Assembly: GCA_030695945.1 (NCBI GenBank) | Contig: JAUYOG010000049.1 | Span: 1 to 64,000, forward strand | Length of the DNA: 64,000 bases | Source of the DNA: Ramlibacter sp. | Lineage (GTDB): Bacteria > Pseudomonadota > Gammaproteobacteria > Burkholderiales > Burkholderiaceae_C | Direction: 5' to 3' | Shown: positions 45,980 through 62,199 of the stretch, piece by piece | Layout of the letters: each line of letters begins with the position of its first letter | Numbering within the stretch: position 1 is the first letter of the stretch | Position numbers and translations under genes: made by a program | Notes under the pieces: model-generated | What the model saw: only the letters and a program-made list of their open reading frames with translations | Database searches by the model: none | What the model was told of the DNA's origin: nothing

Positions 45980-46825
45980 CTAGCCCATTCTCAGGGCCAT
46001 CACGCCGGCGACGATCGCTGCCGTGCCGGCTGCGCGCCGCAGGTTGAAGGCTTCCTTGAGGAACCACACGCCGAGCAGCACGGCGAACAGCACCGAGGTC
46101 TCGCGCAGCGCGGCCACCGTGGCCACGGGCGCCTTGGTCATCGCCCACAGCGCAATGCCGTACGAGCCCAGCGACGCGGCGGCAGCCAGCGCCGCGACCG
46201 GCCAGCGGGCGCGAGCGTAAGGCAGCGCGACGGCCCCGCCGCGCCGCAGGAACACGATCAGCGCGAACGGCCAACCGTCCAGCACGAACAAAGCGACGAC
46301 GTATTGCAGCGCATTGCCGCTGGCGCGCACGCCGAGCGCGTCGACCACGGTGTAGAGCGCGATCACCACGGCATTCGCCAGCGCAAACCCCACGGCGCGC
46401 GGCGAGTCGAGGGCGTGGCGCGAGAGGCCCAGCGCGAGCACGCCGCAGCTCACGCCCACTACGCCCGCCCAGGACAGCGGCGAGAGCGTCTCGCCCAGCA
46501 TCGTCGCCGCCGACAGCGCCACGAGCAGCGGCGCGGTGCCGCGCATCAGCGGATAGGTCAGGCCCAGGTCGCCGTGCTTGTAGGCGCCCGTGAGGGCGAT
46601 GTAGTAGCCGATGTGGATCACCACCGAGGCCAGGATGTAGGGCCACGCCACGGCGTCCGGCCAGCCGACGATGAGGACCAGCGGCAGCGCCACCACCGAG
46701 CCGACGAGGTGGATGACGGCGGTGTCCAGTGCCTTGTCCCGGCTGGACTTGACCAGCGCGTTCCAGCTGGCATGCAGCAGCGCCCCGAACAGCACGGCCG
46801 CGACCACCGGCCAGGTGAGGGTCAT
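45980..46825 (-). CDS. DMT-family (EamA) transporter
   Basis: A 281-residue inner-membrane protein with ten hydrophobic helices in two EamA repeats (about residues 5-135 and 145-280). Features are LLHASWNALVKSS, YPLMRGTAPLLVALSA and the second-repeat VAALRETSVLFAVLLGVWFLKE. Its start overlaps the phnZ stop by 4 bases, so it belongs to the phosphonate operon. It probably moves a substrate or product of that pathway; the direction is unknown. Confidence 0.83.
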   Translation of the reverse strand: MTLTWPVVAAVLFGALLHASWNALVKSSRDKALDTAVIHLVGSVVALPLVLIVGWPDAVAWPYILASVVIHIGYYIALTGAYKHGDLGLTYPLMRGTAPLLVALSAATMLGETLSPLSWAGVVGVSCGVLALGLSRHALDSPRAVGFALANAVVIALYTVVDALGVRASGNALQYVVALFVLDGWPFALIVFLRRGGAVALPYARARWPVAALAAAASLGSYGIALWAMTKAPVATVAALRETSVLFAVLLGVWFLKEAFNLRRAAGTAAIVAGVMALRMG

Positions 46826-47385
46826 GGAGCGGGCTCGCTCGCGGCCAGGGCGCAGCGCCGGGCGCGCTCCAGGAAATGCGCGAGCGGGGGCGTCGCGAGG
46901 CCCGCCGTCTTGGCCTGGTCATCCCAGACGCGCAGCCGCACCGCGTCGGCGGCGCCGCGCTGGGCGATGAAGGCCTCGGCCTGCCCTTCGTTGAAGATGC
47001 CGCCCTGCAGCCCGAGCGAGCGCTTCGAGTCGTCCGACAGCGCCGCGAAATAGCCGGGGCGCGTCGCGCACAGGTAGCGCTTGGCATCGACGTGCAGCTT
47101 GACCGGCTCGATCACCGCTTCGCCGAACAGCCCGCGCAGGAAGGGCAGCGCGCGGTACTGGTGGATGTCGTCCACGCCCTGGAGGCTGGGCGTGTCGCCG
47201 AGGTCGTGCAGCAGGTGCCCGAGGTCGTGCAGCAGCGCGGCCGTCACCAGTTCGTCGTCGGCGCCATCGGCCTCGGCCAGCAGCGCGCATTGCAGCGCGT
47301 GCTCCAGCTGGGTCACCGCCTCCCCCGCATAGCGCTCGCCGCCGCGTTCGGCGAACAGTTGCCCGATGTCGGCAAAGCTGATCAT
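46822..47385 (-). CDS. phnZ: PhnZ-type HD-domain mixed-valent diiron oxygenase
   Basis: An HD-fold diiron oxygenase of the PhnZ family, which cleaves the C-P bond of (R)-2-amino-1-hydroxyethylphosphonate to glycine and phosphate. The lid motif YAGE (Tyr19, Glu22) followed by VTQLEHALQ and the metal ligands HDLGH (His53, Asp54) match PhnZ. The 187-aa length fits. PhnZ normally partners with the hydroxylase PhnY*, but no Fe/2-oxoglutarate dioxygenase gene is in the window, so this enzyme may act on hydroxylated aminophosphonate taken up from outside. It is 10 bases after phnY. Confidence 0.85.
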   Translation of the reverse strand: MISFADIGQLFAERGGERYAGEAVTQLEHALQCALLAEADGADDELVTAALLHDLGHLLHDLGDTPSLQGVDDIHQYRALPFLRGLFGEAVIEPVKLHVDAKRYLCATRPGYFAALSDDSKRSLGLQGGIFNEGQAEAFIAQRGAADAVRLRVWDDQAKTAGLATPPLAHFLERARRCALAASEPAP

Positions 47386-47395
47386 GAAAGGCGTC

Positions 47396-48847
47396 TCACG
47401 GCCATGGCAGCGAGTAGGTCTTGAGGTGGGTGAAGCTCTTCATGGCTTCCTGCACGCCTTCCTTGTAGCCCAGCCCGGAGTCCTTGATGCCGCCGAACGG
47501 CGTGAGCTCGAGCCGGTAGCCCGGCACCTCGCGCACGTTCACAGAGCCGACCTCCAGCTCATTGACGAAGCGCGTGATGTAGTCGAGGCGGTTGGTGCAG
47601 ACCGAGCTGGACAGGCCGTAGGCCGTTCCGTTCGAGATCGCGATCGCTTGCTCGATGGTGCTGAAACGGATGACGGGCGAGACCGGGCCGAAGGTTTCCT
47701 GCTTGACCAGCGTCATGTCCGGGCGGACGTTGTCGAGCACTGTCGGCGAATACAGCGCGCCCTGGCGGCTGTTGCCCACCAGCAGGCGCGCGCCCTGCGA
47801 CACGGCCTCGTTCACGCGGGACTCGAACAGCGTGGCGGCCGCCTCGTCGATCACGGTGCCCATGTCGTTGGAAGCGTCCTGCGGGTCGCCGTGCTTCCAG
47901 GCGCGCGACTTGGCCACCACCTGCTCGGTGAACTCGCCCGCCACGGCTTCGTGTACCAGCATCCGCTTCACGGCGGTGCAGCGCTGGCCGGAGTTCTTGT
48001 AGGAGCCCTGCACGGCGAGCGATGAAGCCTCGTCGATGTCGGCATCCTCCATCACGATGATCGGGTCGTTGCCGCCCAGCTCCAGCACCACCCGCCGGTA
48101 GCCCGCCTTCGCCGCGATGTACTTGCCGATGGCGACGCCGCCGGTGAAGGTGACGAGGTCCACGCGCGGGTTGGTAATGAGCTCGTCGGCGATCTCGCGC
48201 GGATCGCCCGTCACCACGCTGAGCATCTCCGGCGGCAGGCCCGCCTGGTACAGGATGTCGGCGAACAGGATCGCGGAGAACGGCACCTTCTCCGAGGGCT
48301 TGAGCACCATGCGGTTATTGGTGGCGATGCTGGGCACCACCTTGTGCGCCACCTGGTTCATCGGGTGGTTGAAAGGGGTGATGGCCGTGATCACGCCCAG
48401 CAGCGGCGAGCGCTGCGTATAGACGCGGCGCTTCTTGCCGTGCGGCGTCAGGTCGCAGCTGAAGACCTGGCCGTCGTCCTTGAGCACCTCGTTCGCGCCG
48501 AACAGCAGCACGTCGCTCACGCGACCGGCTTCGTAAACGGAGTCCTTCAGGCACAGCCCGGACTCGGCGGTGATCAGGCGCGCGATGTCGTCCAGCCGCT
48601 CGCGCACGATCGCCGCCGCTAGGTTCAGGATCGCCGCGCGCTCGTAGCGCGTGAGCTGGCTGCGGAAAGCATGCGCCGACTCGAAGGCTTCGCGCACTTC
48701 CTCCAGCGTCGCCTTGGGCACGGCGCCGACGCGCTCCCTCGTGAACGGGTTGAACACGTCGATCGCGCGCTCCCGCCCCGCGCCGACCTTGCGCCCTGCG
48801 ATCCGCATCGCGTCGAGCCCGTTATCGCGGATGAATTGGCCGATCAT
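47396..48847 (-). CDS. phnY: Phosphonoacetaldehyde dehydrogenase PhnY
   Basis: An NAD(P)-dependent aldehyde dehydrogenase, 483 residues, that oxidises phosphonoacetaldehyde to phosphonoacetate. ALDH motifs are TPFNHPMNQVAHKVVPSIATNN, FTGGVAIGKYIA, the general base in VLELGGNDP and the nucleophile in NSGQRCTAVKR. Placement between phnA and phnZ, with phnW in the divergent operon, specifies the substrate. A family-1 palindromic repeat lies between its start and the phnA stop. Confidence 0.9.
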   Translation of the reverse strand: MIGQFIRDNGLDAMRIAGRKVGAGRERAIDVFNPFTRERVGAVPKATLEEVREAFESAHAFRSQLTRYERAAILNLAAAIVRERLDDIARLITAESGLCLKDSVYEAGRVSDVLLFGANEVLKDDGQVFSCDLTPHGKKRRVYTQRSPLLGVITAITPFNHPMNQVAHKVVPSIATNNRMVLKPSEKVPFSAILFADILYQAGLPPEMLSVVTGDPREIADELITNPRVDLVTFTGGVAIGKYIAAKAGYRRVVLELGGNDPIIVMEDADIDEASSLAVQGSYKNSGQRCTAVKRMLVHEAVAGEFTEQVVAKSRAWKHGDPQDASNDMGTVIDEAAATLFESRVNEAVSQGARLLVGNSRQGALYSPTVLDNVRPDMTLVKQETFGPVSPVIRFSTIEQAIAISNGTAYGLSSSVCTNRLDYITRFVNELEVGSVNVREVPGYRLELTPFGGIKDSGLGYKEGVQEAMKSFTHLKTYSLPWP

Positions 48848-48913: not shown

Positions 48914-50855
<1,942 letters not shown>

Positions 50856-50948: not shown

Positions 50949-51022
50949 ATTAGAGCAGCATCGGTGGGATTGTCAACAATCTGCAAAAAACAATTGACAA
51001 CATAAAAGACGGGGCGTCAAAT
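50949..51022. promoter_or_regulatory. Divergent promoters and operator of the phosphonate locus
   Basis: Rightward: TTGACA (50994-50999), a 17-base spacer, TCAAAT (51017-51022). Leftward: TTGACA (complement of 50971-50976), a 16-base spacer, TCTAAT (complement of 50949-50954). Both -35 boxes are embedded in TTGTCAA (50970-50976) and TTGACAA (50994-51000), an inverted pair 17 bases apart. One repressor bridging them would silence both arms. The assignment to PhnR is an inference. Confidence 0.72.
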
Positions 51023-51122: not shown

Positions 51123-52160
51123 ATGCGTCCTTCGCTCGCCATCCAGTCCCTCCTGCTTGCAGGCCTCGCGGCCGTCTCGACCGGGGCGTTCGCCCAGAAG
51201 ACCCAGCTGCTGGTGTACACCGCGCTGGAGACCGACCAGATCAAGGCCTACGCCGACGGCTTCAACAAGGTCCACCCCGACATCGAGATCAAGTGGGTGC
51301 GCGATTCCACGGGGGTGATCACGGCCAAGCTGCTCGCCGAGAAGGGCAACCCGCAGGCCGACGTGGTGATGGGCGTCGCCGCCTCCAGCCTCGCGCTGCT
51401 GGACAAGCAGGGCATGCTGGTGCCCTACGCGCCGCTGAACCTGGACGCGATCATGAGCCAGTACCGCGACAAGAAGAAGGTGCCGGCCTGGTGGGGCATG
51501 GATGTGTGGGGGGCCACCGTGTGCTTCAACACGGTGGAGGCGCAGAAGAAGAACATCCCCAAGCCCGAAACCTGGCAGGACCTGGCCAAGCCCGTCTACA
51601 AGGGCCAGGTCGTCATGCCCAATCCCGCCTCCAGCGGCACCGGCTATTTCGACGTGACGGCGTGGCTCACCCTGTTCGGCGACGACAAGGGCAAGGGCGG
51701 CGGCTGGAAGTACATGGATGCCCTGCACGAGAACATCGCGCAGTACACGCACTCGGGCTCCAAGCCCTGCAACATGGCGGCGTCCGGTGAATACGTGGCG
51801 GGCATCTCGTTCGAATACCGCGGCAACACCAACAAGGCCAAGGGTGCGCCGATCGACCTGGTGTTCCCCAAGGAGGGCCTGGGCTGGGACCTGGAAGCCT
51901 TCGCCATCCACAAGGGCACCAAGAAGCTCGACGCCGCCAAGAAGCTGGCCGACTGGGCCTCGAGCAAGGACGCGATGATGCTGTACGGCAAGAACTTTGC
52001 GATCACCGCGCAGCCCGGCGTCGCCGCGCCGCTGGCCAACGTCCCCAAGGACTACGAGGCGCGCCTGGTCAAGATGGACTTCAACTGGGCGGCCGAGAAC
52101 CGCGAGCGCATCCTGACGGAGTGGACCAAGCGCTACAACAGCAAAACCGAGAAGCGCTGA
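51123..52160 (+). CDS. phnS2: 2-aminoethylphosphonate ABC transporter, periplasmic binding protein
   Basis: A 345-residue solute-binding protein of the extracellular type 1/6 iron-carrier-like family. A signal peptide (LLLAGLAAVSTGAFAQ) is followed by KTQLLVYTALETDQIKAYADGFNKVHPDIEIKWV, WWGMDVWGATVCFN, NPASSGTGYFDVTAWL and AYKGAPIDLVFP-type elements. GAGGAG precedes ATG 51123. It is the first gene of the plus-strand arm, followed by its ATPase and permease and then phnW, which gives the substrate assignment. Confidence 0.88.
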   Translation: MRPSLAIQSLLLAGLAAVSTGAFAQKTQLLVYTALETDQIKAYADGFNKVHPDIEIKWVRDSTGVITAKLLAEKGNPQADVVMGVAASSLALLDKQGMLVPYAPLNLDAIMSQYRDKKKVPAWWGMDVWGATVCFNTVEAQKKNIPKPETWQDLAKPVYKGQVVMPNPASSGTGYFDVTAWLTLFGDDKGKGGGWKYMDALHENIAQYTHSGSKPCNMAASGEYVAGISFEYRGNTNKAKGAPIDLVFPKEGLGWDLEAFAIHKGTKKLDAAKKLADWASSKDAMMLYGKNFAITAQPGVAAPLANVPKDYEARLVKMDFNWAAENRERILTEWTKRYNSKTEKR

Positions 52161-52166
52161 CGTGGC

Positions 52167-52242
52167 TGTCATTGCGGGCTCGACCCGCAATCCATCTTGG
52201 CGAGCGGTCCAACATGGATGCCGGGTCGAGCCCGGCATGACA
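52167..52242. repeat. Dispersed palindromic repeat, family 1, copy 4
   Basis: A 76-base copy starting TGTCATTGCGGGCTCGACCC and ending GTCGAGCCCGGCATGACA. It fills the gap between the binding-protein and ATPase genes. In this position a transcribed hairpin could raise expression of the binding protein over the membrane components. Confidence 0.85.
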
Positions 52243-52258
52243 AATCCCAGGTAGTCCG

Positions 52259-53398
<1,140 letters not shown>

Positions 53399-53402
53399 TC
53401 CC

Positions 53403-55112
53403 ATGGCCGCCGTCCTGCAGGCCCCGCGTGCCGCACCGGTCAAGCAGTCCGCGCACTGGACCGACCGCATCGCACACCTGGCCCTGCTGGTGGTGGCGCT
53501 CGCGCTGGCGGGCTTCCTCGCGCTGCCGCTGCTCACCATCCTCGTGCAGGCGCTGCAGGGCAGGGACGAGCAGTTCGTAGCCCTCGCCAACTTCATCGAA
53601 TACGCGAAGACCCCGTCGCTGCTGGACAGCCTGTGGAACAGCGTGTGGGTGTCGGCGGTCGTCACCCTCGTCACGGTGCCGCTGGCTTTCGGCTTCGCGT
53701 ATGCGCTGGCGCGTTCGTGCATGCCGCTCAAGCCCCTGTTCCGCGGCATCACGCTCATCCCGCTGCTCGCGCCCTCGCTGCTGTCGGCGATTTCGCTGAT
53801 CTACTGGTTCGGCAACCAGGGCGTGTTCAAGGCCTGGCTGACGAGCATCGGCATCACCGAAATCTACGGCGCACCGGGCATCGTGGTGGCGGAGTGCTTC
53901 GCCGTGTTCCCGCACGCGCTGATGATCCTGGTCACCGCGCTCAGCCTCTCGGACGCGCGCCTGTACGAAGCCGCCGACGCGATGGGCACCAGCGCGCAGC
54001 GCAAGTTCTTCACCATCACTCTGCCCGGCGCGAAGTACGGCCTGATCTCCGCGGCGCTCGTCACCTTCACCCTCGTGATCACCGATTTCGGCATTCCCAA
54101 GGTGATCGGCGGCAGCTTCAACGTGCTGGCCACCGACGTGTTCAAGCTGGTGATCGGGCAGCAGGACTTTTCCAAGGGCGCTGTCGTCGCCATCCTGCTG
54201 CTGGCGCCGGCGGTGCTCACGTTCGCGGTCGACGGCTACGTGAGCCGCCGCCAGACCGCGATGCTCACCGCGCGCGCCGTCCCCTACGTTCCCAAGGCCT
54301 CGCCCCGGTACGACGCGGCGATGACGCTGTATTGCTCGCTCATCGCCTTCCTCGTGCTGGCGATGCTGGGCATGGCGGTGTTCGCCTCGTTCGCGACGTT
54401 CTGGCCCTACAACCTGACGCCCAGCCTGCGCCACTATGTACTGGGGCTCGTGGACGCCGAGGTCAGCGTGGGTTTCGTCAACAGCCTGAAGATGGCCGGC
54501 GGCACGGCACTGTTCGGCACCGCGCTGGTGTTCTGCGGCGCCTACCTGTTGGAGAAAACCAAGGGCATGGAGGGCCTGCGCGGCGTGGTGCGGTTGCTGG
54601 CAATGCTGCCGATGGCGGTGCCGGGCCTGGTGCTGGGCCTGGGCTACATCTTCTTTTTCAACGAGCCGAAGAATCCCCTCAACGGCCTGTACCACACGGT
54701 GACGCTGCTCACGCTGTGCACCATCGTGCACTTCTATACGACCGGCCACCTGACGGCGGTGACGGCGCTCAAGTCGCTCGACGGCGAGTTCGAGGCCGTG
54801 AGCGCCTCGCTCAAGGTGCCCTTCTACAAGACGTTCTGGCGCGTGACGCTGCCGATCTGCACGCCCGCGCTGGTGGACATCGCCCGCTACTTCTTCATCA
54901 ACGCCATGACGACGATCTCGGCCGTGGTGTTCCTGTATTCGCCGGAAACCAAGGTCGCCTCGATCGCGATCCTCAACCTCGACGAGGCGGGCGAGATCGG
55001 CGCCGCCGCGGCGATGGCGGTGCTGATCGGCGTCGTGTCGGCCACGGCGACGCTGGCGTTCATGGCGCTCGCGTGGTGGGTCAACCGCCGCACGCAAGCC
55101 TGGAAGAAATGA
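53403..55112 (+). CDS. phnU2: 2-aminoethylphosphonate ABC transporter, permease
   Basis: A 569-residue fused permease with two BPD_transp_1 domains and about twelve hydrophobic helices. The EAA loops are YEAADAMGTSAQRKFFTITLPG (about residues 190-212) and FEAVSASLKVPFYKTFWRVTLP (about 463-485), one per half, so a single polypeptide forms the whole channel. ATG 53403 follows directly after the ATPase gene. It belongs to the same family as iron(III) and spermidine/putrescine permeases; the phosphonate assignment rests on context. Confidence 0.88.
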   Translation: MAAVLQAPRAAPVKQSAHWTDRIAHLALLVVALALAGFLALPLLTILVQALQGRDEQFVALANFIEYAKTPSLLDSLWNSVWVSAVVTLVTVPLAFGFAYALARSCMPLKPLFRGITLIPLLAPSLLSAISLIYWFGNQGVFKAWLTSIGITEIYGAPGIVVAECFAVFPHALMILVTALSLSDARLYEAADAMGTSAQRKFFTITLPGAKYGLISAALVTFTLVITDFGIPKVIGGSFNVLATDVFKLVIGQQDFSKGAVVAILLLAPAVLTFAVDGYVSRRQTAMLTARAVPYVPKASPRYDAAMTLYCSLIAFLVLAMLGMAVFASFATFWPYNLTPSLRHYVLGLVDAEVSVGFVNSLKMAGGTALFGTALVFCGAYLLEKTKGMEGLRGVVRLLAMLPMAVPGLVLGLGYIFFFNEPKNPLNGLYHTVTLLTLCTIVHFYTTGHLTAVTALKSLDGEFEAVSASLKVPFYKTFWRVTLPICTPALVDIARYFFINAMTTISAVVFLYSPETKVASIAILNLDEAGEIGAAAAMAVLIGVVSATATLAFMALAWWVNRRTQAWKK

Positions 55113-55190
55113 TGCCCCCACGCTTTTCACTTCGTGTAATGCGCTGCCCCCCGAGGGGGCGCGTTTCGCCTTGGGGCGGCCCGGCGGCGA
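55112..55190. repeat. C/G-rich repeat, family 2, copy 3
   Basis: Contains GCGCTGCCCCCCGAGGGGGC (from 55141) and CCTTGGGGCGGCCC. It lies between the permease stop and phnW, ending about 25 bases before the phnW start. Confidence 0.65.
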
Positions 55191-55214
55191 AACCTGCAAG
55201 ATAGGAAGTACCTC

Positions 55215-56333
55215 ATGGACCGCGACAAGATCCTCCTCACGCCGGGCCCGCTGACGACGACCCTGCGCACCAAGCTCGCGATGCTGCGTGACTGGGGCTC
55301 GTGGGACAGCGACTTCAACGACGTGACGGCGCGGGTGCGCCGCAGCCTGCTGAAGATCATCCACGGGCAGGACACCCATGTCGTCGTCCCGCTGCAGGGC
55401 AGCGGCACCTTCAGCGTGGAAGCCGCCGTCGCCACCGTCGTCCCGCGTGATGGCCATGTGCTGGTGCTGGACAACGGCGCCTACTGCAAGCGCGCCGCGA
55501 AGCTGACGTCGATGATGGGGCGCCGTTGCACCGTGATGGCATTCGACGAGGCCGCCCAGGTGTCGCCCGTCGCATTGGAGGTGAAGCTGACCGCCGACGC
55601 GAGCGTGACGCATGTCGTGCTCATCCATTGCGAAACGGGCGCGGGCGTATGGAACCCGCTGCAGGAAGTCGCGGACACTTGCGAGAAGTACGGCAAGGGG
55701 CTGATCGTCGACGCGATGAGCTCGTTCGGCGCGCTGCCCATCGACGCGCGGGAGACGCGCTTCGACGCGCTGGTCGCCGCCAGCGGCAAATGCCTGGAGG
55801 GCGTGCCTGGGATGGGCTTCGTCTTCATCCGCAAGGCGGTGCTTGCCGGATGCGAGGGCCGCAGCCAGTCGCTGGCGATGGACCTGCACGACCAGCACGC
55901 CTACATGGAAAGAACCGGCCAGTGGCGCTTCACGCCGCCCACGCATGTGGTCGTCGCGCTGGCCGAGGCCATCGCCCAGTTCGAGGAAGAGGGCGGCCAG
56001 CCGGCGCGCCTGGCGCGCTACACGCAGAACTACCGCACTCTCATCCACGGCATGTCGCGCCTGGGGTTCATGCCCTTCCTGGACCCGGCGGTGCAGGCGC
56101 CGATCATCGTCACGTTCCATGCGCCGGGCGACTCGCGCTACGAATTCAGGGCGTTCTACGCATTCGCCCGCGAGCGGGGTTTCATCCTGTATCCGGGCAA
56201 GCTCACACAGGTCGAAACTTTTCGCGTAGGCTGTATCGGGGCGATCGGCCCCAACGAGATGGAGCAGGCGGTGCAGGCCGTGGCCCTCGCGCTGGAAGAC
56301 ATGGGCATCGCTTCCGGAGAACCCGCGATCTGA
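55215..56333 (+). CDS. phnW: 2-aminoethylphosphonate--pyruvate transaminase PhnW
   Basis: A PLP-dependent class V aminotransferase, 372 residues, that converts 2-aminoethylphosphonate and pyruvate to phosphonoacetaldehyde and alanine. It begins [19 protein letters not shown] contacts include Asp166 in IVDAMSSFG and the Schiff-base Lys192 in [12 protein letters not shown]. The C-terminal [19 protein letters not shown] is typical. Its product feeds PhnY and PhnA, encoded in the divergent operon; no phosphonatase (phnX) is present. Confidence 0.94.
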
Positions 56334-56361
56334 CCGAAGAAGAACAGGAGTCCCCACCCCC

Positions 56362-57720
56362 ATGGCCACCAAAGTCCACCCCGCCGTCGCGAAGATCCGC
56401 AAATCCGGCGCCAGCAAGGTCAAGGTCGCGTGCAGCGACATCGACGGCATCCTGCGCGGCAAGTACCTGCACAAGGACAAGTTCGAGGGCGCTGTCGACA
56501 GCGGCTTCGGCTTCTGCGACGTGGTGTTCGGCTGGGACTCCAGCGACAACGTCTACGACAACACCCAGGTCACGGGCTGGCAGCACGGCTTTCCCGATGC
56601 GCTGGCGCGGCTGGATCTGGACACGCACCGCAACGTGCCTTGGGATGGCGGTGTCGATTTCTTCCTGGGCGAATTCATCAACACGGACGGCAGCCCCTAC
56701 CCGGTGTGCCCGCGCCAGACGCTCAAGCGTGTCCTGAAGCGCGCCGGGAAGCTTGGCTTCCAGGTGATGACGGGAATGGAGTACGAGTGGTTCAACTTCC
56801 GCGAGACGCCGCAGAGCTGGGCCGCGAAGAAAGGCGTCGGGCCCGAGACGCTGACGCCGGGCATGTTCGGCTATTCGCTGCTGCGCGTGAACGAGAACCG
56901 CGAGTTCTTCAACGCCCTGATGGACGAGATGCTGGCGTTCAACGTGCCGATCGAGGGCCTGCACACCGAAACCGGCCCCGGCGTGTACGAGGCGGCGATC
57001 GCGTTTTCCGAGGCGCTGGAGCAGGCCGACCGGGCGATCCTGTTCAAGACCGGCGCCAAGGAAATCGGCTCGCGCTTTTCCATCATGCCCAGCTTCATGG
57101 CCAAGTGGAGCGCTCAATATCCCGGCTGCAGCGGCCATATCCACCAGAGCCTGTCGGATGGCAAGGCCAACCTCTTCTTCGACGCCAAGTCGCCGCGCAG
57201 GATGAGCAAGCTTTTCGAAAGCTACCTTGCCGGCCAGGTGATGTGCCTGATGGAATTCGCGCCCATGTTCTGGCCCACCATCAACAGTTACAAGCGGCTG
57301 GTGGATGGCTTCTGGGCGCCGGTCAAGCCGACCTGGGGCATGGACAACCGCACGGCGAGCTTCCGCGTGATCGCGGGCAGCCCCAAGTCCACCCGGCTCG
57401 AGACGCGCTGCCCGGGAGCGGACGTCAATCCCTACCTCGCGATGGCGGCCGTGATCGCAGCCGGCCTGTACGGCGTGGAAAAGGGCCTGAAGCTCACCAC
57501 CCCGCCTATCACCGGCACCAACCAGGGCGCCGAGAACATTTCCCGAGCCCCGCGCACCCTGATCGAAACCACCCGCAACTTCAGCAACTCGAAGATCGCC
57601 CGGGATTTCCTGGGCGATACCTTCGTCGAACATTTTGCGGCCACCCGCGATTGGGAATGGCGGCAGTGGCTGGACGGGGTGACGGATTGGGAATTGAAGC
57701 GCTATTTCGAAATCATCTGA
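56362..57720 (+). CDS. Glutamine synthetase-like gamma-glutamyl ligase
   Basis: A 452-residue member of the glutamine synthetase superfamily, in the clade that gamma-glutamylates amines (PuuA/IpuC-like). GS motifs are MTGMEYEWF (metal Glu), HTETGPGVYEAA (metal Glu), CSGHIHQSL (metal His), TASFRVI (Arg) and RLETRCPGADVNPYLAMAA. The N-terminal half of the usual GS beta-grasp is present in shortened form. It does not look like the housekeeping nitrogen-assimilation enzyme: no adenylylation Tyr loop is visible. It starts 28 bases after phnW and is followed by ADH, ALDH and gamma-glutamyl hydrolase genes, so a gamma-glutamyl-amine pathway is inferred. Confidence 0.85.
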   Translation: MATKVHPAVAKIRKSGASKVKVACSDIDGILRGKYLHKDKFEGAVDSGFGFCDVVFGWDSSDNVYDNTQVTGWQHGFPDALARLDLDTHRNVPWDGGVDFFLGEFINTDGSPYPVCPRQTLKRVLKRAGKLGFQVMTGMEYEWFNFRETPQSWAAKKGVGPETLTPGMFGYSLLRVNENREFFNALMDEMLAFNVPIEGLHTETGPGVYEAAIAFSEALEQADRAILFKTGAKEIGSRFSIMPSFMAKWSAQYPGCSGHIHQSLSDGKANLFFDAKSPRRMSKLFESYLAGQVMCLMEFAPMFWPTINSYKRLVDGFWAPVKPTWGMDNRTASFRVIAGSPKSTRLETRCPGADVNPYLAMAAVIAAGLYGVEKGLKLTTPPITGTNQGAENISRAPRTLIETTRNFSNSKIARDFLGDTFVEHFAATRDWEWRQWLDGVTDWELKRYFEII

Positions 57721-57729
57721 GCTGCCCGT

Positions 57730-58233
57730 ATGGAGATCCGCCGCCTCGGCCCCGACGATGCTCCCGACTACCGGGCGTTGCGCATGCGCGCGCTGTGGGA
57801 GTTCCCCGAAGCCTTCACCTCCAGCTGGCAGGAGGACGAGATGCAGCCGATGCAGGCCTGGGAGGTCCGCCTCGGCGGCGAGCACGCCATGTTCTGGGGC
57901 GCCTTCGATGGCGGCGCACTGTGCGGCATGGTCGGGCTGGAGCGCCAGACGCGCTCCAAGAACCGGCACAAAGCCACGGTGGTAGGCATGTACGTCTCGC
58001 AGGAGTACTTTGGCACGGGCATGGGCCGCGCGCTGATGGAAGCCCTGCTCGGCGTCGCCCGCGAAGAGGGCGTCGAGCTGCTGGTACTCACCGTGACCGA
58101 GGGCAACAGCGTCGCGACGAACTTCTACGGGCAGTTCGGCTTCCGCTCCTTCGGCATCGAGCCGCGCGCCATCAAGGTCGATGGCAGTTACTTTTCCAAG
58201 AACCACATGTACCTGGAACTGGAAGCATCATGA
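57730..58233 (+). CDS. GNAT family N-acetyltransferase
   Basis: A 167-residue GNAT protein. The acetyl-CoA loop is VVGMYVSQEYFGTGMGRALMEALL (about residues 85-108), preceded by the beta4 strand GMVGLERQ, and followed by NSVATNFYGQFGFRSFG. The partner substrate is unknown. In phosphonate operons GNAT enzymes such as PhnO acetylate aminoalkylphosphonates, which would fit, but this sequence looks RimI-like and the assignment stays open. It starts 10 bases after the GS-like gene and overlaps the next start by 4 bases. Confidence 0.82.
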   Translation: MEIRRLGPDDAPDYRALRMRALWEFPEAFTSSWQEDEMQPMQAWEVRLGGEHAMFWGAFDGGALCGMVGLERQTRSKNRHKATVVGMYVSQEYFGTGMGRALMEALLGVAREEGVELLVLTVTEGNSVATNFYGQFGFRSFGIEPRAIKVDGSYFSKNHMYLELEAS

Positions 58234-59363
58234 CCATATCCGGTTTTTCGTTCCCCACCGCCATCCGCTTCGGGCCCGGCGCGCGCAGGGAAGTGGCGCA
58301 GCACCTGCTGGGCCAGGGGCTGAAGCGCCCGCTGATCGTGACCGACAAGGCGCTGGCGCAACTGCCGGTGCTGGCCGAATTCAGGACGCACCTGGGGGGG
58401 CTCGACGCGGCGGTGTTCGCCGGCGTGTTCGGCAACCCCACCTGCAGCCAGGTGATGGAGGGCGCACGGGCCTTCAAGGCCCACCGCGCCGATTGCGTGA
58501 TCGGCTTCGGCGGCGGCGCTGCCCTCGACGTCGCCAAGGTGGTGGGCGTGGCCGCCACCCATCCGGGCGACATCCTCGAGTATGTGTGGGACCACCCGAC
58601 GGTGCGCCCCATCGACGGGCAGCTGCCCTACTTCGTCGCGCTGCCCACCACTTCCGGCACGGGCTCGGAGGTTGGCCGCTCGTCGGTGGTGAGCGAGAAC
58701 GACACGCACCTCAAGCGCGTGGTCTTCAGCCCGAAGATCCTGGCGAAGGTCGTCTTCGCCGATCCGGAGCTCACGCTGGGCCTGCCCGCGGCCGTCACCG
58801 CGGCCACCGGCATGGACGCGCTCACGCACAACATCGAGAGCTACCTCTCGCCCGCCTACCACCCGCTGTGCGACGGCATCGCGCTGGAAGGCACCAGGAT
58901 CGCCGCCCGCGCGCTCGTCACCGCGGTGCAGGAGCCCGGCAACCTGCAGGCGCGCAGCGACATGATGATGGCTTCGATGATGGGCGCCATCGCGTTCCAG
59001 AAGGACCTGGGCGCGGTGCACTCCTGCGCGCACGCGCTTGGCGCCGTCTGCGACCTGCACCACGGCCTGGCCAACGCGCTGATGATCGACACGGTGATGG
59101 CGTGGAACCACGCGGCCGCGCCAGAAAAATTCGATGAGCTGGCGCATGTGTGCCGGGTGTCCGGCGGCGGCGGGGAATTCGTGCCGTGGCTGCGCGCGCT
59201 CAAGGCCCGCGTCGGCATCACCGGCAAGCTCTCCAAGCACGGCGTGAAACGGGAGCAGCTGCCGCGCCTCGTGGAGATCGCCACGGCCGACATGTGCCAC
59301 CAGACCAACCCACGGCCCTGCACGACCGCCGACTTCCGGCGCATGTTCGAGGAAGCGATGTAA
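58230..59363 (+). CDS. Iron-containing (group III) alcohol dehydrogenase
   Basis: A 377-residue NAD(P)-dependent Fe-ADH. The nucleotide motif is IGFGGGAALDVAKVVG and the signature ALPTTSGTGSEVGRSSV. Iron ligands are in GMDALTHNIESY (Asp, His), CAHALGAVC (His) and DLHHGLANAL (His). Group III dehydrogenases include phosphonoacetaldehyde reductases of phosphonate antibiotic pathways. Here it may oxidise 2-hydroxyethylphosphonate to phosphonoacetaldehyde, or a gamma-glutamyl amino alcohol to the aldehyde; both are inferences. It is coupled to the GNAT gene (ATGA) and directly abuts the next gene. Confidence 0.88.
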   Translation: MTISGFSFPTAIRFGPGARREVAQHLLGQGLKRPLIVTDKALAQLPVLAEFRTHLGGLDAAVFAGVFGNPTCSQVMEGARAFKAHRADCVIGFGGGAALDVAKVVGVAATHPGDILEYVWDHPTVRPIDGQLPYFVALPTTSGTGSEVGRSSVVSENDTHLKRVVFSPKILAKVVFADPELTLGLPAAVTAATGMDALTHNIESYLSPAYHPLCDGIALEGTRIAARALVTAVQEPGNLQARSDMMMASMMGAIAFQKDLGAVHSCAHALGAVCDLHHGLANALMIDTVMAWNHAAAPEKFDELAHVCRVSGGGGEFVPWLRALKARVGITGKLSKHGVKREQLPRLVEIATADMCHQTNPRPCTTADFRRMFEEAM

Positions 59364-60164
59364 ATGGACCATTCGCAGCGCCTGAAGATCGGCATCTCCG
59401 CCTGCTTCATGCACGCGGATCCCGCGCGCCAGCTTTTCACCGGGAAGACCCTGCAATACGTCGAGCAGTCGATCGCGCACTGGGTCATGTCCAGCGGCGC
59501 GATGGCCGTGATGATCCCCAGCCCCACCGGCGCGACCCAGCGCGGCGACGTCACGCTCGATCACTACGCGCAGTGGCTGGACGGCCTGGTGCTGCACGGC
59601 GGCGCCGACGTGTCGCCGCTGTCCTATGGCGAGAAGCCGATCCAGGACAAGTGGGCCGGCGACCGGATCCGCGACGAGTACGAGATCGACCTGGTCGCCG
59701 CCTTCGAGCGGCATGGCAAGCCCGTGTTCGGCGTCTGCCGCGGCCTGCAGCTTCTGAACGTCGCGTATGGCGGCACGCTGTACCAGGACATCGAGACGCA
59801 GATCCCCAAGGCGCTGCGGCATCGCGACGCGCAGGTGTACGACAACAACTTCCACGGCGTGGAGTTCGCACCCGGCTCGCGCCTGGCGGCGATGTACCCC
59901 AACGACAAGCGTGTGAAGGTCAACAGCATCCACCACCAGGCCATCAAGGACCTGGCGCCCGGCTTCGAGGTCGAGGCGATGAGCCACGAGGACGGCATCG
60001 TCGAAGCGATCCGGCGCGGCGACGGCAGCCAATCCTATGTCGCCGCCGTGCAGTGGCACCCCGAGTTCCACCGATCCGACTCCGAGACCATCGACGATGC
60101 AGCCCTGCTGGAGGACTTCCTCGCCGCCGCGGCCGCCGCCAGAAAGAAGCTGCAGATCCCATGA
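59364..60164 (+). CDS. Gamma-glutamyl-gamma-aminobutyrate hydrolase (PuuD) family protein
   Basis: A 266-residue class I glutamine amidotransferase-like hydrolase that releases glutamate from gamma-glutamyl amides. Catalytic elements are the nucleophile in FGVCRGLQLLNVAYGG, the oxyanion motif LVLHGGADVSPLSYGE, and the His-Glu pair in VQWHPEFH. The NSIHHQAIKDLAPGF segment is typical of PuuD. Its ATG follows the ADH stop with no gap, and its stop overlaps the ALDH start. With the GS-like ligase it frames a make-then-release gamma-glutamyl cycle. Confidence 0.88.
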   Translation: MDHSQRLKIGISACFMHADPARQLFTGKTLQYVEQSIAHWVMSSGAMAVMIPSPTGATQRGDVTLDHYAQWLDGLVLHGGADVSPLSYGEKPIQDKWAGDRIRDEYEIDLVAAFERHGKPVFGVCRGLQLLNVAYGGTLYQDIETQIPKALRHRDAQVYDNNFHGVEFAPGSRLAAMYPNDKRVKVNSIHHQAIKDLAPGFEVEAMSHEDGIVEAIRRGDGSQSYVAAVQWHPEFHRSDSETIDDAALLEDFLAAAAAARKKLQIP

Positions 60165-61534
60165 CGACCCTCTCCATCCACAACCCCGCCAACGGCGAGA
60201 AGATCGCCGACGTCCCCGCCGACGACGCCGCTTCGGTCGCAGCCAAGACGGCGCGCGCGCGCGCCGCGCAAGCCGGCTGGGCCGCGCGGCCGCTGGCCGA
60301 TCGCAAGGAGTGCATCGCGCGCTTTCGCGATGGCGTCGTGCGCGACCTGGAGAAGCTGGCCGTCACCATGACGCGCGAGACCGGCAAGCCGATCAGCATG
60401 TCGCGCAACGAGTTGAACGGGCTGCTGGGCCGGCTCGATTTCTTCGTTGGCATGGTCGAGCCCGTCACCGCCACCGAAACCGTGTACGACGAAGGCGGGA
60501 TGCGCGAGCGCATCGAGCATGTGCCGCTGGGCGTGGTCGGCAACATCTCGGCGTGGAACTACCCTTGGTTCGTCAGCTGCAACGTGATCGTGCCGGCGCT
60601 GCTGACCGGCAACGCGGTGCTCTACAAGCCTTCCGAATACGCGACCCTGACCGGCCTGGAGATCGCGCGGCTGCTGCACGAGGCGGGCGTGCCCGAGGAC
60701 GTGTTCCAGCCGCTGGTGGGCGCGGGCCCGGTCGGCGCCTCGCTGCTGGAGCAGAAGCTGGACGGCCTGTTCTTCACCGGCTCCTACGCCACCGGCACCC
60801 GGATCGCGCAAGTGATCGGCCCGCGTTTCGTCAAGCTGCAGCTGGAGCTCGGCGGCAAGGACCCGACCTATGTCTGCGACGACGCCGACCCGAAGACGGC
60901 CGCCGAATCGCTGGCCGATGGCGCGATGTACAACACAGGCCAGAGCTGCTGCTCGGTCGAGCGCATCTACGTGCACGAGAAGATCCACGACGCGTTCCTG
61001 GCCGCTTTCGTCGAAACGGTGAAGGGCTTCAAGGTGGGCGACCCGATGGACGAGGCCACGTACATCGGCGCGATCACGCGCACGCCGCAGCTGGACGTGC
61101 TGGACGCGCAGGTCGCCGACGCGCAGGCCAAGGGCGCGCAGCTGCACACCGGCGGCCAGCGCCTGCGGGGGCCCGGCAACTGGTACGCGCCCACGGTGTT
61201 CAGCAACGTCGACCACCGGATGGAGCTGATGCGCGAGGAAAGCTTCGGCCCGATCATCGGCATCCAGAAGGTGGGCGGCGACGAGGAAGCGGTCGCGCTC
61301 ATGAACGACACGCGCTACGGCCTCACGGCGGGCGTCTACACGCCGGACGTGGCGCGGGCCGAGAGGCTGCTGTCGCGCCTGCATGCCGGCAGCCTCTACT
61401 GGAACTGCTGCGACCGCGTCAGCCCGCGCCTGCCGTGGAGCGGTTTCGGCGACTCGGGCATCGGCATCACGCTGTCCACTTACGGCATCGAGGCGTTCAC
61501 GCGGCCGCGGGCCTGGCACATGCGGACGGCATGA
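60161..61534 (+). CDS. Aldehyde dehydrogenase (PuuC/betaine-aldehyde type)
   Basis: A 457-residue NAD(P)-dependent aldehyde dehydrogenase. Motifs are GVVGNISAWNYPWFV, FFTGSYATGTRI, the general base in LELGGKDPTYV and the nucleophile in NTGQSCCSVERIYV (Cys-Cys pair). It is different from the PhnY dehydrogenase on the other strand, so it likely handles another aldehyde, plausibly a gamma-glutamyl aminoaldehyde made by the neighbouring Fe-ADH. Both ends overlap neighbours by ATGA, which places it firmly in the operon. Confidence 0.88.
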   Translation: MTTLSIHNPANGEKIADVPADDAASVAAKTARARAAQAGWAARPLADRKECIARFRDGVVRDLEKLAVTMTRETGKPISMSRNELNGLLGRLDFFVGMVEPVTATETVYDEGGMRERIEHVPLGVVGNISAWNYPWFVSCNVIVPALLTGNAVLYKPSEYATLTGLEIARLLHEAGVPEDVFQPLVGAGPVGASLLEQKLDGLFFTGSYATGTRIAQVIGPRFVKLQLELGGKDPTYVCDDADPKTAAESLADGAMYNTGQSCCSVERIYVHEKIHDAFLAAFVETVKGFKVGDPMDEATYIGAITRTPQLDVLDAQVADAQAKGAQLHTGGQRLRGPGNWYAPTVFSNVDHRMELMREESFGPIIGIQKVGGDEEAVALMNDTRYGLTAGVYTPDVARAERLLSRLHAGSLYWNCCDRVSPRLPWSGFGDSGIGITLSTYGIEAFTRPRAWHMRTA

Positions 61535-62199
61535 CAGCGCCGCGGCTCGTCCTTTTCGACCTGGACCACACCTTGCTGTCGGGCGATAGCGACGTGCTGT
61601 GGTGCGACTTCCTGATGGACAAGGGCCTGCTGGAGCGCGCCGCGTTCGCGCAGCGCAACGCCGACATGGATGCGCGCTACCGGGACGGCACCGTCGGCGC
61701 GCAGGAGTTCGCGGATTTCTATGTCGGCACGCTGGCGGGCAAGTCGCCGGCGCAGTGGGAGGACCTGCGCCAGGAGTTCCTGGCGACGCAGGTCGCGCCG
61801 CGCATCCCGGCCGCCGCGCTGGAACTGGTGAAGCGCCACCGGGATGCCGGCGACCTGGCCGTGATGACCACGGCCACCAACCGCTTCATCACGGAGCTGA
61901 CGGCGCGGCACTTCGGCATCGGGCACCTGCTCGCCACGGAGCCGGAAATGCGGGACGGCCTGTTCACGGGGCGCTGCAGCGGCATCCTCAACATGCGGGC
62001 GGGCAAGGTCGAGCGCTTGCATGAGTGGTTGGGCGCGCGCGGGCAGGGCCTGCGTGAGTTCCACAGCACGGCCTACAGCGATTCCATCAACGACCTGCCG
62101 CTGCTGGAAGCCGTGGATGCAGCCGTCGCCGTGGACCCCGATCCGCGCTTGGCGGCGATCGCGCGGGAGCGAGGCTGGCGAGTGCTTCGCTTGCATTGA
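61531..62199 (+). CDS. HAD-IB family phosphatase
   Basis: A 222-residue SerB-like haloacid-dehalogenase hydrolase of subfamily IB. Motif I is LFDLDHTLLSG (nucleophile Asp10, acid Asp12), motif II AVMTTATNRFI, and motif IV STAYSDSINDLPLLEAV. The helical cap (about residues 20-85) is the C1 type. The substrate is unknown; as the last translationally coupled gene of the phosphonate/gamma-glutamyl operon it might dephosphorylate a phospho-amino-alcohol such as phosphoethanolamine, which would feed the ligase (speculative). Confidence 0.83.
   Translation: MTAPRLVLFDLDHTLLSGDSDVLWCDFLMDKGLLERAAFAQRNADMDARYRDGTVGAQEFADFYVGTLAGKSPAQWEDLRQEFLATQVAPRIPAAALELVKRHRDAGDLAVMTTATNRFITELTARHFGIGHLLATEPEMRDGLFTGRCSGILNMRAGKVERLHEWLGARGQGLREFHSTAYSDSINDLPLLEAVDAAVAVDPDPRLAAIARERGWRVLRLH

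What the first reader, a model, noticed from the sequence alone, without database searches (positions are those of the whole stretch)
51123..62199. Phosphonate operon fused to a gamma-glutamyl amino-alcohol pathway
The 2-aminoethylphosphonate transporter and phnW are followed, with gaps of 0-28 bases or ATGA overlaps, by a GS-like ligase, GNAT, Fe-ADH, PuuD-like hydrolase, ALDH and HAD phosphatase. In the Puu pathway an amine is gamma-glutamylated, oxidised by the flavoprotein PuuB, then PuuC, then released by PuuD. Here an alcohol dehydrogenase stands where the amine oxidase would be. This suggests the substrate is an amino alcohol: for ethanolamine, the steps would be gamma-glutamyl-ethanolamide, gamma-glutamyl-aminoacetaldehyde, gamma-glutamyl-glycine, then glutamate and glycine. 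I know of no description of this combination with AEP catabolism; the substrate is inference.
Basis: partly seen in the sequence, partly recalled or inferred. Interest (0 to 1): 0.8.

Follow-up and report, generated by a model that had tools for sequence, protein, structure and literature searches.

The report
Phosphonate operon with ethanolamine pathway
A bacterium related to Ramlibacter carries, in one apparent operon behind one regulatory site, genes to break down a natural phosphonate and genes that look like a known ethanolamine-degrading route, and a phosphatase found almost only where the two are joined suggests it may also eat phosphoethanolamine, a common lipid head group.

Summary
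In detail: phnS2-T2-U2-phnW is followed, with gaps of 0-28 bases or ATGA overlaps from phnW on, by GS-like ligase, GNAT, Fe-ADH, PuuD-like hydrolase, ALDH and HAD. The chemistry is known (gamma-glutamyl-ethanolamide route of Chromohalobacter, Agrobacterium, Phaeobacter; Streptomyces variant). My searches found no report of its fusion to an aminoethylphosphonate operon, yet the fusion recurs: phnW lies directly upstream in 27 of 69 assessable named loci. One operator, unique in this genome assembly, precedes the operon; two ligase blocks without phn genes nearby carry the same operator and PhnR. New here: the operon-type HAD occurs in 20 of 22 assessable fused loci, 0 of 32 unfused blocks and 0 of 29 phnW clusters of genomes lacking the ligase clade; the two fused exceptions lack the transporter. 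I infer that the transporter also imports O-phosphoethanolamine and that HAD frees ethanolamine from it. This step is inference; a related binding protein (AepX) is strictly specific, and nothing was assayed.

The parts
46822..47385 (-). Phn-HD, HD-domain phosphonate oxygenase family
   Evidence: TIGR03276 241 bits, cut-off 214.6
47396..48847 (-). phnY, phosphonoacetaldehyde dehydrogenase
   Evidence: TIGR03250 856 bits, cut-off 635.65
48914..50128 (-). phnA, phosphonoacetate hydrolase
   Evidence: TIGR02335 589 bits, cut-off 407.55
50112..50855 (-). phnR, GntR-family regulator
   Evidence: TIGR03338 341.6 bits, cut-off 271.5
50968..50981 (.). putative PhnR operator GATTGTCAACAATC, with CAATTGACAA downstream (a -35-like TTGACA)
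   Evidence: only place in the own genome at up to 1 mismatch, reversed-pattern control 0; conserved before phn operons and before two phn-free ligase blocks
51123..52160 (+). phnS2, AEP-family substrate-binding protein
   Evidence: TIGR03261 502.8/392.75; SBPs of fused operons form one clade, 100/94
52259..53398 (+). phnT2, ABC ATPase
   Evidence: TIGR03265 489.2/457.7
53403..55112 (+). phnU2, ABC permease
   Evidence: TIGR03262 792.1/593.25
55215..56333 (+). phnW, AEP:pyruvate transaminase
   Evidence: TIGR02326 489.0/400.8
56362..57720 (+). GS-like ligase, probable gamma-glutamylethanolamide synthetase
   Evidence: below all GS-family cut-offs; clade A of the GS tree; beside ethanolamine genes elsewhere
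57730..58233 (+). GNAT acetyltransferase, role unknown, not conserved
   Evidence: PF00583; present in 10 of 80 named loci
58230..59363 (+). Fe-ADH, probable gamma-glutamylethanolamide dehydrogenase
   Evidence: no NCBIfam cut-off met; follows the ligase in 68 of 80 named loci
59364..60164 (+). PuuD-like class I amidotransferase fold, probable gamma-glutamylglycine hydrolase
   Evidence: PuuD model 94.9/266; PDB relatives 3fij, 7d4r, 6vtv
60161..61534 (+). ALDH, probable gamma-glutamyl-aminoacetaldehyde dehydrogenase
   Evidence: ALDH family; no cut-off met among the 25 best NCBIfam models shown
61531..62199 (+). HAD-IB phosphatase, inferred O-phosphoethanolamine phosphatase
   Evidence: PF12710, TIGR01490 129.9/98.3; operon HADs form one clade apart from the genomic histidinol-phosphatase-like copies

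Best explanation
The segment is a combined catabolic operon for two 2-aminoethyl compounds. AEP enters through PhnSTU and is degraded by PhnW, PhnY and PhnA (assigned by family models). Behind the same PhnR operator lies a gamma-glutamyl-ethanolamide pathway: the ligase makes gamma-glutamylethanolamide from ethanolamine, glutamate and ATP; Fe-ADH makes the aldehyde; ALDH makes gamma-glutamylglycine; the PuuD-like hydrolase releases glycine and glutamate. These steps are inferred from relatives' gene contexts and the published pathway. The HAD phosphatase would supply ethanolamine plus phosphate from O-phosphoethanolamine, an isostere of AEP taken up by the same or a broadened transporter; this is inferred from HAD's co-occurrence pattern. 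My odds: co-transcription about 0.9, ethanolamine as the ligase's substrate about 0.8, phosphoethanolamine import plus HAD about 0.45.
For: One operator before the operon, single in the own genome. In L094 and L113 the operator, phnR (322.1 and 326.1 bits against 271.5) and a permease flank a ligase block with no phn structural gene in the stretch held; the L094 genome has no phnW match. Clade A ligase blocks beside an ethanolamine permease (L036 and cluster mates L037-L039, L144), beside EutA/EutBC-like genes (L043, cluster mates L045, L046) and near EutB in L113. phnW- and permease-linked ligases interleave (16 changes, at least 5 forced by starred branches; quick tree). PhnW in 13 of 22 clade-A genomes against 36 of 377 others, p 6.7e-8; 12 of the 13 have both on one contig, all within 27 kb (coordinates). 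HAD: 20 of 22 fused, 0 of 32 unfused, 0 of 29 phnW clusters in genomes without clade A; both HAD-less fused loci (L034, L097) lack phnSTU. Operon HADs are one clade apart from the housekeeping-type copies. PDB relatives of PhnS2 include a pyridoxal-5-phosphate-binding protein (6wce). No TIGR00908 permease and no EutBC match in the own genome (assembly 79% complete).
Against: No activity was tested. AepX, a binding protein of AepS's Pfam family, bound AEP at 0.023 uM and methyl-, ethyl- and aminomethylphosphonate thousands-fold more weakly; phosphoethanolamine is not in that table (PMC8316502 section 9). In G038, a fused single-contig genome, the operon HAD is the only hit of its type, so it might serve histidine synthesis there. 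L085 is fused with STU but has no ALDH, PuuD or HAD; it was dropped from the HAD count because ALDH was required. The HAD/phnW independent-pairs test found 4 pairs only, p 0.125. PuuD is missing in fused L033, L034, L076, L081 and L088; downstream genes scanned in L033 and L076 are TPR and aminotransferase genes, not hydrolases. L043's EutA/EutB/EutC scores are below their cut-offs. The operator was not found upstream of the other unfused ligase blocks. In G241 the HAD lies beside phnW, over 17 kb from the ligase.
Confidence: 0.62

Rival explanations
1. Same ethanolamine pathway and shared control, but no phosphoethanolamine step: ethanolamine enters by diffusion or an unrecognised transporter, and HAD acts on another phosphate ester, for example as a second histidinol phosphatase.
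For: HAD lies close to the histidinol-phosphatase model NF052360 (235.4 bits, cut-off 280); in G038 it is the only HAD of its type.
Against: The own genome holds a second HAD nearer that model (269.9, also below the cut-off of 280); operon HADs are a separate clade; HAD tracks the phn-ligase fusion, which histidine synthesis would not explain.
Confidence: 0.25
2. The ligase gamma-glutamylates O-phosphoethanolamine itself and HAD then removes the phosphate from the conjugate.
For: Same co-occurrence of HAD with the fusion.
Against: Interleaved, closely related ligases sit beside ethanolamine permeases without HAD, so ethanolamine is the simpler substrate.
Confidence: 0.08
3. The ligase acts on AEP, putrescine or another amine, and Fe-ADH and ALDH serve a phosphonate such as 2-hydroxyethylphosphonate.
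For: The block lies in a phn operon; Fe-ADHs occur in phosphonate clusters (model TIGR03405 exists, but this protein scores 157.1 against 423.7).
Against: The same ligase clade exists in genomes where PhnW was not found (9 of 22 clade-A genomes; all 8 unlinked genomes tested) and beside ethanolamine genes; the putrescine ligase model scores 169.3/650.
Confidence: 0.1
4. Chance or merely historical adjacency of two unrelated catabolic modules.
For: The block is often separate from phn genes (39 of 69).
Against: Recurrence (27 of 69), overlapping stop/start codons, one shared operator, the regulator and operator kept on phn-free blocks, genome-level co-occurrence.
Confidence: 0.05

Closest known systems
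Ethanolamine gamma-glutamylation pathway of Chromohalobacter salexigens / Agrobacterium tumefaciens / Phaeobacter sp. MED193 (PMC10132767, passages seen)
   Same: GS-like ligase, gamma-glutamylethanolamide dehydrogenase, aldehyde dehydrogenase and gamma-glutamylglycine amidohydrolase encoded together; same proposed intermediates.
   Different: There a TRAP ethanolamine transporter (EtoX) is described in the operon and no phosphonate genes are named in it. Here the neighbours are phnSTUW, a HAD phosphatase and PhnR; order is ligase-ADH-PuuD-ALDH, against ligase-ALDH-ADH by the MED193 locus tags and in my clade B, whose ligases are 44-52% identical to the window's.
Streptomyces coelicolor GlnA4 cluster (PMC6529630, passages seen)
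   Same: gamma-glutamylethanolamide synthetase, dehydrogenase, ALDH and amidohydrolase proposed for ethanolamine.
   Different: A short-chain dehydrogenase in place of the Fe-ADH and a formylglutamate-amidohydrolase-family enzyme; no phosphonate genes mentioned in the passages seen.
E. coli Puu pathway (recalled)
   Same: Glutamylate, oxidise, oxidise, hydrolyse.
   Different: The FAD oxidase PuuB is replaced by an Fe-ADH; putrescine ligase and PuuD equivalog cut-offs not met.
phnSTUW-phnA-phnY AEP catabolism (PMC8154272 and PMC8316502, passages seen)
   Same: Transporter, PhnW, PhnA, PhnY and PhnR-type regulator families.
   Different: The ethanolamine block and HAD are added to the operon; 'glutamine synth' has no occurrence in the main text of PMC8154272, nor 'ethanolamine' in that of PMC8316502.

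Membership tests
gamma-glutamyl-ethanolamide pathway | ligase, alcohol dehydrogenase, ALDH and gamma-glutamyl hydrolase genes in one unit | tested here: met
gamma-glutamyl-ethanolamide pathway | ethanolamine-specific ligase activity | not testable with these tools
   context only:
gamma-glutamyl-ethanolamide pathway | ethanolamine transporter gene in the unit | tested here: not met
   none among the genes called in the operon; no TIGR00908 match in the own genome, 79% complete; EtoX-type TRAP genes were not searched; permeases present beside relatives
Puu putrescine pathway | gamma-glutamylputrescine synthetase equivalog | tested here: not met
   NF045547 169.3/650
Puu putrescine pathway | PuuD equivalog | tested here: not met
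   NF008471 94.9/266
Glutamine synthetase (GlnA, type I or III) | equivalog score | tested here: not met
   195.2/429.15 and 198.3/469.6; the genome has another, stronger PF00120 protein
AEP transport and degradation (PhnS2T2U2, PhnW, PhnA, PhnY) | equivalog scores | tested here: met
AEP transport and degradation | AEP binding by PhnS2 | not testable with these tools
   family model only
Histidinol-phosphatase, HAD type | NF052360 equivalog score | tested here: not met
   235.4/280; the own-genome paralogue scores 269.9, also below
Phosphoethanolamine phosphatase (HAD) | activity on O-phosphoethanolamine | not testable with these tools
   inferred from co-occurrence

The most novel reading that the evidence does not exclude
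The fused operon is an integrated uptake and degradation system for intact 2-aminoethyl head groups. A specialised PhnS2 clade imports both aminoethylphosphonate and O-phosphoethanolamine; the C-P compound goes through PhnWYA; the C-O-P compound is dephosphorylated in the cytoplasm by a dedicated HAD-IB phosphatase, and its ethanolamine is degraded by gamma-glutamylation, all controlled by PhnR. This would be a phosphoethanolamine importer with its own phosphatase, an answer to the intact-head-group uptake question left open in PMC10132767.
Probability: 0.42. Interest if true: 0.75.

Novelty: new variant of a known kind. Interest (0 to 1): 0.6.

Why it matters
Phosphorylethanolamine and aminoethylphosphonate are near-identical head groups that differ in a C-O-P against a C-P bond. 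A 2023 study of marine bacteria states that it is undetermined whether intact phospholipid head groups are imported before catabolism (PMC10132767 discussion passage). This operon offers a concrete candidate: one transporter, one phosphatase, one ethanolamine route, one regulator. It would tie phosphonate and phospholipid-head-group use in Burkholderiales, and it assigns testable roles to HAD, Fe-ADH and GS-like genes that family models leave unnamed.

Tried and rejected
Histidinol phosphatase as HAD's only role: rejected as the leading idea because the own genome has a nearer copy and operon HADs are a separate clade, but kept as a rival because of G038. Gamma-glutamyltransferase as a substitute for the missing PuuD in L033/L076: not found; the genes scanned are TPR proteins and aminotransferases. 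The EamA gene (TIGR03340, 272.5 bits, cut-off 288.15) as a PhnY*-type dioxygenase: rejected, it is an EamA transporter. GNAT as part of the phosphonate function: not supported, since it occurs in 10 of 80 named loci: 2 with phnW directly upstream (L070, L075), 6 without, 2 with too short an upstream. My first gene finder trained itself on antisense frames and was replaced (then). A specialised binding pocket in fused PhnS2: 10 positions separate fused from unfused SBPs, but the fused SBPs are one clade and fused PhnWs are one clade except L053, so shared ancestry may explain them; no structure was predicted. Literature: nine searches found no account of this fusion. Of the papers listed I saw passages of PMC10132767, PMC6529630, PMC8154272, PMC8316502 (also its section 9), PMC10574752 and PMC9311074, and only listings of the rest.

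Rows dropped before counts: 11 of 80 loci had under 1300 bases upstream of the ligase, and 38 of 80 were not informative for HAD (no ALDH hit, under 900 bases behind it, or short upstream); among the latter L102 and L112 are fused and do have HAD, while L085, L106 and L108 are fused with STU and show no ALDH or HAD (L085 with about 8 kb of sequence behind Fe-ADH; L106 ends within Fe-ADH; L108 about 2.3 kb behind the ligase). One search merged both locus sets without duplicates; the values of 17 of its 54 rows were entered by hand. L051 has a HAD on the other strand several kb away that groups with the histidinol-phosphatase-like copies. Of 39 non-own ligase matches, regions of 37 were fetched (not G188, G283). 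Of 36 PhnW-positive genomes without clade A, regions of 31 were fetched: 28 with closer PhnW (29 loci) and 3 with a distant one, HAD in none.
Full report
What is there. The window (assembly of 3.75 Mb, 73 contigs, 79% complete; nearest ligase relatives Caenimonas and Ramlibacter, Comamonadaceae) holds two divergent arms. Minus strand: Phn-HD, phnY, phnA and phnR. Plus strand: phnS2, phnT2, phnU2, phnW, GS-like ligase, GNAT, Fe-ADH, PuuD-like hydrolase, ALDH and HAD. From phnW to HAD the genes overlap or lie 0-28 bases apart. The phn genes pass their curated cut-offs; the ligase, ADH and hydrolase pass none of those listed, nor does the ALDH among the 25 best models shown, so family models do not name their substrate.

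What the ligase block is. A search of 399 genomes of the order found 40 with a ligase match at E 1e-60 or better: 22 at 66-100% identity (clade A, the window included), 16 at 44-52% (clade B) and 2 at 35%. I fetched surroundings of 37 of the 39 others. Clade A is mostly followed by Fe-ADH, usually PuuD, and ALDH; clade B shows ligase-ALDH-Fe-ADH, the order given by the locus tags of the Phaeobacter ethanolamine operon (PMC10132767). In 80 further named loci (some the same contigs as before), Fe-ADH follows the ligase in 68. Clade A blocks stand behind an ethanolamine permease in L036 (625.6 bits, cut-off 381.75; L037-L039 share the cluster) and L144 (426.1). L051, L082, L103 and L121 have relatives of 360-376 bits, just below the cut-off. 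Behind EutA-like and fused EutB-EutC-like genes they stand in L043, with L045 and L046 in the same clusters (below cut-offs); L113 has EutB (666.9, cut-off 554). In these surroundings phnW was not found in the genome: 0 of 8 (G272, G357, G212, G104, G016, G342, G157, G118) and 0 of 2 (L103, L111). On the ligase tree phnW-linked and permease-linked members interleave (16 changes of the phnW label, at least 5 forced by starred branches; 113 rows, quick method). The window's nearest ligase (93%) is in Caenimonas soli, away from phn genes and in a genome with no PhnW match. The simplest reading is one enzyme with one substrate, ethanolamine, in both settings.

Link to phosphonates. Of 69 named loci with at least 1300 bases upstream of the ligase, 27 have phnW directly upstream on the same strand, 3 have phn genes elsewhere in the stretch, 10 have the permease and 29 none of these. 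In the order set 6 of 22 clade-A loci have phnW upstream and 4 more have phn genes within the 20 kb held (10 of 22), against 0 of 15 clade-B loci, p 0.002. PhnW is found in 13 of 22 clade-A genomes and in 36 of 377 others, p 6.7e-8, uncorrected for kinship. In 12 of the 13, both lie on one contig, from 28 bases to about 26 kb apart; in G387 they lie on different contigs.

Shared control. GATTGTCAACAATC at 50968-50981, between phnR and phnS2, is the only match at up to one mismatch in the own assembly. Of 22 intergenic stretches compared, 20 share TTGTCAACAA; the other two, L094 and L113, carry GATTGTTAACAATC. L094 and L113 are ligase blocks with phnR (322.1 and 326.1 bits, cut-off 271.5) and a permease but no phn structural genes in the stretch held; the L094 genome has no PhnW match, that of L113 was not tested. 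The operator also precedes phn operons without the block directly behind (L155, L156, L182, L186). At up to one mismatch it was found in 33 of 156 records (34 sites in 2.76 Mb), some of them outside promoters, and not upstream of the other unfused ligase blocks except in L041 and L044, where it lies in their phn clusters. The binding of PhnR to it is inferred.

The HAD gene. In 42 named loci where HAD could be judged, it follows ALDH in 15 of 17 with phnW upstream and in 0 of 25 without. With both locus sets merged and duplicates removed: 20 of 22 fused, 0 of 32 unfused, p 7e-13 uncorrected for kinship; on the tree only 4 independent pairs were available, agreeing in 3.8 on average, p 0.125. 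The two fused exceptions, L034 and L097, are the ones without phnSTU (p 0.004, two rows only). In 29 phnW clusters of genomes without clade A, HAD is absent (0 of 29; 23 of them have T and U); of 9 further phnW loci, only L181 has it. L181 is in G241, whose clade-A ligase lies on the same contig, over 17 kb from the HAD. The 28 operon HADs form one clade (99/97) apart from 15 other genomic copies, including the own genome's second copy. HAD therefore tracks the combination of AEP transporter and ethanolamine block. O-phosphoethanolamine is the phosphate ester that resembles AEP and yields ethanolamine; hence the inferred step. Support from the binding protein is modest: the nearest solved relatives include a pyridoxal-5-phosphate-binding protein (6wce) and the 4r72 group, recalled as binding sugar phosphates. 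Against it, AepX is highly specific for AEP among four phosphonates tested.

Prior knowledge. Gamma-glutamylation of ethanolamine is described for C. salexigens and A. tumefaciens (cited in PMC10132767), Phaeobacter (PMC10132767) and Streptomyces (PMC6529630). The solved structure 5dm3 (205.9 bits) is, from recall, the C. salexigens ligase. The pathway is thus known; its fusion with AEP genes and the HAD pattern I did not find in nine library searches.

Verdict. A new variant of a known kind: an established ethanolamine route recurrently wired into the AEP operon, with a specific and testable hypothesis for phosphoethanolamine use. Shown: gene content, recurrence, operator, HAD pattern. Inferred: all activities, regulation by PhnR and transport of phosphoethanolamine.

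Noticed in passing
window 43453-45966 (-): FAD-dependent oxidoreductase fused to GcvT domains (dimethylglycine/sarcosine dehydrogenase type) next to the EamA gene and Phn-HD; with the HD oxygenase it could process N-methylated aminoethylphosphonates (inference).
   Followed up: partly
window 45980-46825 (-): EamA transporter near TIGR03340 phn_DUF6 (272.5 bits, cut-off 288.15); its family also stands divergently beside unfused ligase blocks in Ramlibacter/Caenimonas (L071, L073, L080, L086, L093).
   Followed up: partly
window 41006-43057 (-); L071 6642-8741: An EF-G paralogue lies near the phn cluster, and an EF-G-like gene lies close to the ligase block in L071 (same gene cluster in L073, L080, L093 and L119). 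No reason known.
   Followed up: no
L075 8682-9602: AraC-family regulator resembling EutR (143.6 bits, cut-off 319) between phnW and the ligase in Polaromonas sp. OV174; cluster mates beside permease-linked blocks such as L103 (133.8 bits).
   Followed up: partly
L043 1226-5441: Glycerol-3-phosphate-oxidase-like, FAD/NAD oxidoreductase and glycerol-kinase-like genes precede EutA/EutBC-like genes and the ligase block; the same three clusters occur in clade-B locus L058.
   Followed up: no
L033, L034, L076, L081, L088: Fused operons without a PuuD hit; the enzyme that would release glycine is not identified.
   Followed up: partly
L084, L085: Fused loci with an incomplete block: L084 lacks Fe-ADH, PuuD, ALDH and HAD hits, L085 lacks ALDH, PuuD and HAD hits.
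   Followed up: no
G038 genome (L033): The operon HAD is the only hit of its type in this single-contig genome; its histidinol phosphatase is either another family or this gene.
   Followed up: no
L070 11491-12762; L072 11384: An M20 peptidase gene (nearest model glutamate carboxypeptidase, below cut-off, for L070) is inserted after the ligase in two close relatives of the window.
   Followed up: no
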